From Caldifarciminota bacterium (lineage in GTDB: Bacteria; Hydrothermota; Tepidihabitantia; SM23-42), in assembly GCA_016936155.1 (NCBI GenBank), contig JAFGPO010000097.1, positions 1 to 32,185 on the forward strand: a DNA stretch of 32,185 nucleotides, given 5' to 3'. The notes under the pieces were generated by a model. It was not told where the DNA came from. It worked only from the letters and a program-made list of their open reading frames with translations, and made no database searches. A program made the translations under genes and the position numbers. Shown here one piece after another: positions 27,349 to 27,634 of this stretch (positions are counted from its first letter, which is position 1; every line of letters begins with the position of its first letter).

Positions 27349-27634
27349 GCACCTTCTTTGTCATATGAGATTAGGGATGGATTATCGCTATGCATTATGT
27401 TGACATTCTTGAGAAACGGAATAATGAGGAGATCTATATCGGTTGTACTAACAATCTCAAGAGAAGATTTCGAGAACATAATGTCCACGGTATGAGGTGA
27501 GATTTGATTTATTATGAAGCATACAAGGCGCGAGAAGATGCTTACTTACGGGGAAAAAGCTCAAGTATTATGGTCAGGTGCTTGGTCAACTTAAGAGGCG
27601 CATTAAGAATAGCCTTGTATGACAAAGAAGGTGC
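27349..27634 (+). mobile_element. Insertion 1 in rnpB: inverted-arm element enclosing a decayed GIY-YIG ORF
   Basis: Perfect 17-nt arms GCACCTTCTTTGTCATA (27349-27365) and TATGACAAAGAAGGTGC (27618-27634) with a 252-nt interior. Confidence 0.82.
27390..27622 (+). pseudogene. Degenerate GIY-YIG endonuclease (small UPF0213-like type)
   Basis: MHYVDILEKRNNEEIYIGCTNNLKRRFREHNVHGMR, in-frame TGA at 27498, DLIYYEAYKAREDAYLRGK, then -1 frame KLKYYGQVLGQLKRRIKNSLV and TGA at 27620. Confidence 0.82.

What the first reader, a model, noticed from the sequence alone, without database searches (positions are those of the whole stretch)
27349..27634. Decayed GIY-YIG nuclease ORF inside an RNase P RNA helix
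Seen: the interior reads MHYVDILEKRNNEEIYIGCTNNLKRRFREHNVHGMR-stop-DLIYYEAYKAREDAYLRGK then, one frame back, KLKYYGQVLGQLKRRIKNSLV-stop. This matches the layout of small GIY-YIG proteins: Y-V-x-I-L, E-x-YIG, L-K-R-R-F-x-E-H-N, LIYYEAY, and a basic tail. The interior ORF start and stop lie at the inner edges of the inverted arms. Inference: a nuclease-coding element inserted here and is decaying by a stop codon, a short internal deletion (the usual basic linker between EHN and LIYYE is short), and a 1-nt loss. It could be homing-like or a domesticated remnant.
Basis: partly seen in the sequence, partly recalled or inferred. Interest (0 to 1): 0.82.

Follow-up and report, generated by a model that had tools for sequence, protein, structure and literature searches.

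The report
Broken nuclease element inside RNase P
The gene for the RNA of an essential RNA-cutting enzyme (RNase P) in an uncultured bacterium carries two hairpin-ended insertions, one of them the broken remains of a tiny mobile DNA-cutting gene, and intact relatives of it sit inside RNase P RNA, ribosomal RNA and transfer RNA genes of other bacteria, pointing to a little-noticed family of mobile elements that settles in vital RNA genes.

Summary
Window 27270-28047 is a complete class A RNase P RNA gene. Its P9 helix carries an insert (perfect 17-nt arms 27349-27365/27618-27634) holding a GIY-YIG ORF broken by TGG->TGA and a 1-nt loss. A second insert in P12 (27664-27842) shares the same ends and is non-coding.

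Intact siblings with the same arms lie in the same assembly: directly after tRNA-Ser (C4), and in a second rnpB (C16, probably a co-binned relative). Other members of this phylum carry intact GIY-YIG copies in rnpB at P3, P9 or P12, decayed ones, and ~210-nt non-coding derivatives. More distant palindrome-flanked relatives sit in 23S rRNA (Desulfofundulus), 16S rRNA and beside or within tRNA genes of several phyla, always in host-sense orientation (24/24). No group I/II intron was detected.

Best explanation: a GIY-YIG-coding, hairpin-ended, IVS-like mobile element that lands in stem-loops or at ends of stable RNA genes; here one decayed coding copy and one non-coding derivative. How it moves, and whether it leaves the RNA, is untested. 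GIY-YIG inserts in CPR rRNA were known; RNase P RNA and the shared arms appear new.

The parts
27270..28047 (+). RNase P RNA gene (rnpB, class A) that hosts both inserts; conserved core intact
   Evidence: RF00010 236.6 bits, model 1-367
27345..27638 (+). Element 1 in the P9 helix, about 294 nt: decayed GIY-YIG-coding palindromic element, sense to rnpB
   Evidence: 82% identical to the intact C16 copy
27349..27365 (+). 5' arm of element 1 (GCACCTTCTTTGTCATA)
27618..27634 (+). 3' arm of element 1, perfect complement
27366..27372 (+). Leader box TGAGATT, complementary to AATCTCA inside the ORF (helix A)
27390..27622 (+). Broken GIY-YIG ORF: TGA at 27498-27500 (TGG in siblings), 1-nt loss near 27550-27559, final stop 27620-27622
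27453..27459 (+). AATCTCA, 3' strand of helix A, inside the ORF (codons N-L-K)
27523..27529 (+). ACAAGGC, 5' strand of helix B, inside the ORF (Y-K-A); partner GCCTTGT at 27612-27618
27664..27842 (+). Element 2 in the P12 helix, 179 nt: non-coding relative with the same ends
   Evidence: 72-80% identical over about 163 aligned nt to ~211-nt non-coding rnpB inserts of relatives
27664..27683 (+). 5' arm of element 2 (CCCCGCACCTTTGATGTGAT)
27823..27842 (+). 3' arm of element 2 (ATCACATCATAGGTGCGGGG)
27766..27774 (+). GCGATCTCA in element 2, the box shared with coding elements and complementary to its leader TGAGATC

Best explanation
The P9 insert is a decayed copy, and the P12 insert a non-coding derivative, of a small mobile element: one GIY-YIG nuclease ORF of about 77-88 codons between palindromic arms that begin CCCGCAC or similar, about 260-320 bp in all. 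Shown: the copies, their shared ends, intact siblings at other loci, repeated occupation of stable RNA genes, and presence/absence differences within one genus. Inferred: the arms pair and merely lengthen a peripheral helix (P9, P12), so the catalytic RNA keeps working; the ORF is expressed from the host RNA's transcription; the nuclease cuts DNA at hairpin tips or RNA-gene ends and repair copies the element in; derivatives that keep only the ends and two internal boxes can be moved in trans; copies decay by point mutation and deletion, ending as short GCACC...GGTGC hairpins. The identity of the inserts is strong. The movement mechanism is a guess at about 0.4.
For: GIY-YIG identity: Pfam; AlphaFold model of the intact relative L120, pLDDT 90.5, closest folds UPF0213 1zg2, Slx1 and I-TevI; Y, G, R, H and E positions invariant in 19 relatives. 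Same arms on intact siblings at unrelated loci. The 5'-end pattern at <=1 mismatch hits 11 places in 23 family genomes: 7-8 in rnpB, 2 beside tRNA-Ser, 1 near gltX next to a run of N. Intact GIY-YIG in rnpB P12 (G003), P9 (G017), P3 (G077, G136) and decayed in P12 (G005). In G003, G004, G005, G012, G018 and G021 the insert-bearing rnpB is the only one detected. Within genus g5, P9, P12 and P17-region inserts differ between species. Arms covary: 7 of 21 terminal-stem pairs change on both sides and stay paired in coding copies, 5 of 20 in non-coding ones. Relatives in 23S, 16S and tRNA contexts. ORF is sense to the host RNA in 24 of 24 cases.
Against: No empty/filled pair from the same species, so no insertion was caught. 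No consistent target-site duplication in rnpB or rRNA. All data are from assemblies, mostly MAGs, and C16 has an rnpB missing P3-P12, perhaps a repeat-driven misassembly. Sense orientation could be selection, not mechanism. Interior folding energy is not unusual in most coding copies, nor in the two window copies (z +0.1 and +1.2), so the internal helices rest on short conserved boxes and few covarying pairs. Protein tree support is weak.
Confidence: 0.75

Rival explanations
1. Remnant of a self-splicing group I or II intron with a GIY-YIG homing endonuclease.
For: GIY-YIG ORFs are common in group I introns (general knowledge); the insert lies in a structured RNA gene.
Against: Rfam gathering-level scans of the window and of loci with intact copies show no intron. 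The insert is only about 294 nt and almost filled by ORF plus arms. Tsurumaki et al. 2024 found GIY-YIG ORFs only in non-intron rRNA insertions.
Confidence: 0.04
2. IVS-type element at the RNA level: RNase III cuts the long arms and removes the insert without ligation, so the working RNase P RNA is in pieces. This is compatible with the DNA-level explanation.
For: 20-bp terminal stems closed on a stem-loop are the classical 23S IVS layout; relatives lie in 23S and 16S rRNA.
Against: No transcript data here. Inserts could equally stay in the RNA as long P9 and P12 arms.
Confidence: 0.4
3. No mobility: the P RNA helices expanded in this lineage and the ORF is a vertically inherited, captured gene.
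For: P12 non-coding inserts of three g5 species are similar (79-83%) and could be one ancestral insertion.
Against: Same ends and ORF beside tRNA-Ser in the same assembly. P9 was occupied by two sub-families, with short and long linkers, in G000 and G017. Relatives are spread over several phyla and RNA genes.
Confidence: 0.05
4. Movement at the RNA level (insertion into the RNA, then copying into DNA) explains sense-only orientation and the preference for abundant structured RNAs.
For: 24 of 24 copies in or beside RNA genes are sense; partial tRNA copies flank several elements.
Against: No reverse transcriptase or splicing activity in the element; promoterless ORFs would be selected for sense orientation anyway.
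Confidence: 0.1
5. Chance ORF and hairpin.
For: None.
Confidence: 0.01

Closest known systems
GIY-YIG-coding non-intron insertions in rRNA genes of CPR bacteria (Tsurumaki et al. 2024, PMC11270868)
   Same: Small GIY-YIG ORF in an insertion that is neither group I nor group II intron; sparse; at tops or bases of stem-loops.
   Different: There only 16S/23S rRNA of CPR; palindromic arms, tRNA/rnpB sites and non-coding derivatives are not described (term counts). Here RNase P RNA, another phylum, defined ends.
23S rRNA intervening sequences (IVS) with 23S-IVP ORF
   Same: Palindromic ends closing on a stem-loop of a structural RNA, small ORF inside, no splicing signal.
   Different: ORF is a GIY-YIG nuclease, not 23S-IVP; host RNA is RNase P RNA. 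RNase III excision untested.
Small UPF0213-like GIY-YIG proteins (1zg2 BH0048; also Slx1 and the I-TevI catalytic domain)
   Same: Fold and core motif.
   Different: Here the gene lies within an arm-flanked repeat unit that recurs in RNA genes.
REP/RAYT (TnpA-REP) systems
   Same: Nuclease gene with palindromes plus non-coding palindromic copies.
   Different: GIY-YIG instead of a Y1 HUH transposase; low copy number; located in RNA genes.
Rickettsia palindromic elements
   Same: Palindromic inserts tolerated inside genes (from general knowledge).
   Different: No nuclease ORF is known in those; no sequence comparison was made here.

Membership tests
GIY-YIG nuclease superfamily | Pfam PF01541 match above cut-off | tested here: met
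   30.7 bits vs cut-off 22.6 for the read-through copy; intact siblings 44-47 bits
GIY-YIG nuclease superfamily | Core Y..Y-G...R...H...E residues | tested here: met
   Invariant Y3, Y16, G18, R26, H30, E43 in 19 relatives; the window copy keeps them in pieces
GIY-YIG nuclease superfamily | Endonuclease activity | not testable with these tools
   No assay; the window copy is broken
Group I/II intron | Intron catalytic core detectable by covariance model | tested here: not met
   No intron hit at gathering level
rRNA-type intervening sequence (IVS) | Complementary ends closing on a host stem-loop | tested here: met
rRNA-type intervening sequence (IVS) | Cut out by RNase III without ligation | not testable with these tools
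   Needs RNA from a carrier
rRNA-type intervening sequence (IVS) | Located in rRNA | tested here: not met
   Window copy is in rnpB; relatives L125 and L135 are in 23S and 16S rRNA
Homing endonuclease gene | Cuts the empty allele of its own site; one conserved target | tested here: inconclusive
   Sites differ (P3, P9, P12, rRNA, tRNA ends), but P3, P9 and P12 are hit repeatedly; cutting not testable
Classical IS/MITE | Fixed-length target-site duplication | tested here: inconclusive
   None in rnpB or rRNA; 7-10 nt (L126, L136, L139, L158) and about 43 nt (L138) tRNA repeats
REP/RAYT | Y1 (HUH) transposase | tested here: not met
   The only ORF is GIY-YIG

The most novel reading that the evidence does not exclude
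A distinct class of minimal mobile element: one structure-specific GIY-YIG nuclease plus a Y-shaped palindromic unit whose two inner boxes lie partly inside the nuclease's own codons, with non-coding derivatives moved in trans, that targets hairpins and ends of essential RNA genes (RNase P RNA, rRNA, tRNA) across several bacterial phyla.
Probability: 0.35. Interest if true: 0.87.

Novelty: new variant of a known kind. Interest (0 to 1): 0.72.

Why it matters
RNase P RNA is an essential ribozyme and, in the genomes checked, usually a single detected gene; six relatives carry inserts in their only detected copy, so these helices tolerate mobile DNA. The shared arms tie scattered GIY-YIG inserts in rRNA, tRNA and RNase P RNA genes into one family, make copies searchable, and give a testable answer to why small GIY-YIG ORFs sit in CPR rRNA outside introns. 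A cultured carrier exists (Desulfofundulus thermosubterraneus DSM 16057, intact copy in 23S rRNA).

Tried and rejected
Two weaker arm-pattern hits in the assembly (C102, C44) lie in what reads as protein-coding sequence, without a partner arm, and are chance. Element 2 alone found no second copy by DNA search of the assembly; its kinship rests on ends, the GCGATCTCA box and alignment to relatives' inserts. A claim that the whole interior folds unusually well was dropped. TGA read as Trp was not pursued: the neighbouring TonB-type and RecJ ORFs end in TGA and the frameshift breaks the ORF anyway. The viral collection gave only three weak relatives. No paper on GIY-YIG elements in bacterial RNase P RNA was found.

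Full report
What is there. Window 27270-28047 (+) is a complete class A RNase P RNA gene (RF00010, 236.6 bits, model 1-367), between a TonB-type receptor ORF (25248-27239) and a RecJ-like ORF (28144-29844) (the two names are from my reading of the translations). Two inserts interrupt it. Insert 1 lies in the P9 hairpin. Its arms GCACCTTCTTTGTCATA (27349-27365) and the exact complement (27618-27634) form the only perfect inverted repeat of 12 nt or more within 400 nt in the window; shuffled sequence gives about 0.05 matching 15-mer pairs. Insert 2 (27664-27842) lies in P12, with 20-nt arms that pair apart from one T-T mismatch. Both begin with GCACCTT....GT.ATATGAGAT.

The ORF. Pfam GIY-YIG matches the read-through at 3.9e-7. 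Compared with the intact copy at C4:133-366 (65% identical), the lesions are TGG to TGA at 27498-27500 and one lost base in the A-run near 27550-27559. There is no internal deletion: the short linker EHN-x5-DLIYYE is normal in this sub-family, while other relatives have a longer linker. The last codons and the stop (27620-27622) overlap the 3' arm by 5 nt.

Siblings in the same assembly. A DNA search with the insert finds two other places. C4:89-381 is an intact copy that starts one or two bases after the 3' end of a tRNA-Ser gene. C16:3750-4054 is an intact copy inside another RNase P RNA gene with recJ- and TonB-type neighbours. C16 is a 6.4-kb contig in an assembly with 6.7% contamination, so it is probably a co-binned relative. 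Its rnpB jumps from the P3 5' strand to the P12 3' strand through the element, which may be a misassembly over repeated arms. The 5'-end pattern GCACCTTNNNNGTNATRTGAGAT has four exact hits in the assembly, all in these elements, and none for the reversed control.

Relatives. In the same family (G003 is named candidate division TA06 bacterium DG_78 through L120), intact GIY-YIG ORFs lie in rnpB P12 of G003 and P9 of G017, and a decayed one in P12 of G005. A phylum-wide search adds intact copies in rnpB P3 of G077 and G136, from two other families. Non-coding inserts of about 211 nt with the same ends sit in P9 and P12 of G018, P12 of G004, and P12 and the P17 region of G021; shorter ones in G012. 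Other species of genus g5 lack them at one or more of these sites and show short hairpins such as CCCGCACCAATGGTGCGGG, possibly scars. Each of G003, G004, G005, G012, G018 and G021 has a single detected rnpB, so these genes presumably work with their inserts. Among 23 family genomes the 5'-end pattern with at most one mismatch occurs about 11 times: most in rnpB, 2 directly after tRNA-Ser, 1 near gltX beside a run of N.

Wider family. A scan of one genome per species found 60 loci. About 25 have ORFs near palindromic arms clearly above shuffled controls, or lie in RNA genes. They include an insert in 23S rRNA of Desulfofundulus thermosubterraneus (L125), one in 16S rRNA (L135), several at the 5' end of tRNA-Ala genes or beside/within other tRNA genes (L126, L130, L136-L139, L144, L158), and many between operon genes of CPR bacteria. 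In the phylum scan further copies lie among full and partial tRNA copies (L188, L215, L217-L219). In all 24 cases in or directly beside an RNA gene (7 rnpB, 2 rRNA, 15 tRNA) the ORF has the host RNA's orientation; related loci are not independent, so a simple sign test overstates the significance.

Structure. RNAalifold on six coding copies gives a 21-bp terminal stem and two inner helices. Helix A pairs the leader TGAGATY with RATCTCA inside the ORF; helix B pairs ACAAGGC in the ORF with GCCTTGT at its end. On the named structure, 10 of 35 pairs change on both sides and stay paired against 5.2 in shuffles (0 of 500 as high), mostly in the terminal stem: 7 there, 2 in A, 1 in B. Six non-coding copies keep the terminal stem and box A. 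The match of insert 2 to a coding copy, TACAmGCGATCTCAAAA, exceeded 200 of 200 shuffles, narrowly (29 against 28). Total folding energy of most interiors is not unusual, so the inner helices are probable, not proven, and helix A seems limited to this family.

Protein. The intact G003 protein models with mean pLDDT 90.5. Closest solved folds are UPF0213 BH0048, Slx1 and the I-TevI catalytic domain; sequence profiles agree. Slx1 is a structure-specific nuclease, which makes a hairpin or cruciform substrate plausible; this is inference.

Mechanism. Shown: a repeat unit of arms plus ORF at many loci, decayed and non-coding copies, repeated use of P3, P9 and P12. Inferred: host-driven expression, cutting at hairpin tips or RNA-gene ends, repair-mediated insertion, trans-movement of non-coding copies. 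tRNA-Ala loci show 7-10-nt repeats of the tRNA 5' end and one tRNA locus (L138) a repeat of about 43 nt; rnpB and rRNA sites show no clear repeat. The terminal CCC/GGG may be partly host sequence at tRNA sites.

Literature. Tsurumaki et al. 2024 (PMC11270868) report that GIY-YIG ORFs in CPR rRNA insertions lie in non-intron insertions, are sparse, seem outside spread by homing, and that most insertions sit at tops or bases of stem-loops. That fits. Their main text does not use the words palindromic, inverted or hairpin, nor RNase P. Other searches found nothing closer, but the library is open-access only.

Verdict. A real, decayed member of a GIY-YIG-coding, IVS-like element family, with a second derivative in the same gene. 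It is a new variant of a known kind: the RNase P RNA host, the shared arms across RNA genes and phyla, and the non-coding derivatives appear undescribed.

Noticed in passing
window 25034-25221: Cobalamin riboswitch (59.4 bits) directly upstream of the TonB-type receptor ORF 25248-27239, which suggests a BtuB-like vitamin B12 receptor.
   Followed up: no
L002 1304-1840 (G000:C16): Second rnpB in the assembly appears to lack everything from P3 to P12, replaced by an intact GIY-YIG element; true deletion or misassembly over repeated arms.
   Followed up: partly
L138 2920-3322: GIY-YIG ORF between a partial copy (about 43 nt, itself split by a CCCCGTCGC hairpin) and a full copy of a tRNA in a Zambryskibacteria MAG.
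   Followed up: partly
L188 1-394: GIY-YIG ORF lies between two identical tRNA copies (2-72 and 324-394).
   Followed up: no
L215 1297-1807; L219 1225-1860: GIY-YIG ORFs inside arrays of full and altered tRNA-Pro copies whose D-loops contain GTCCCGCC...GGCGGGAC hairpins.
   Followed up: no
L121 2930-3320: Element appears to split a membrane-anchored protein gene; both flanks code for similar hydrophobic stretches, as if the start had been rebuilt.
   Followed up: no
L127 and L140: GIY-YIG ORF with complete hairpins on both sides, more REP-like than single-arm elements.
   Followed up: no
L050 and L056, P13/P14 region: Extra stem-loops in the rnpB of G018 and G002 containing GGGATTC..CGTCC, not obviously related to the GIY-YIG elements.
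   Followed up: no
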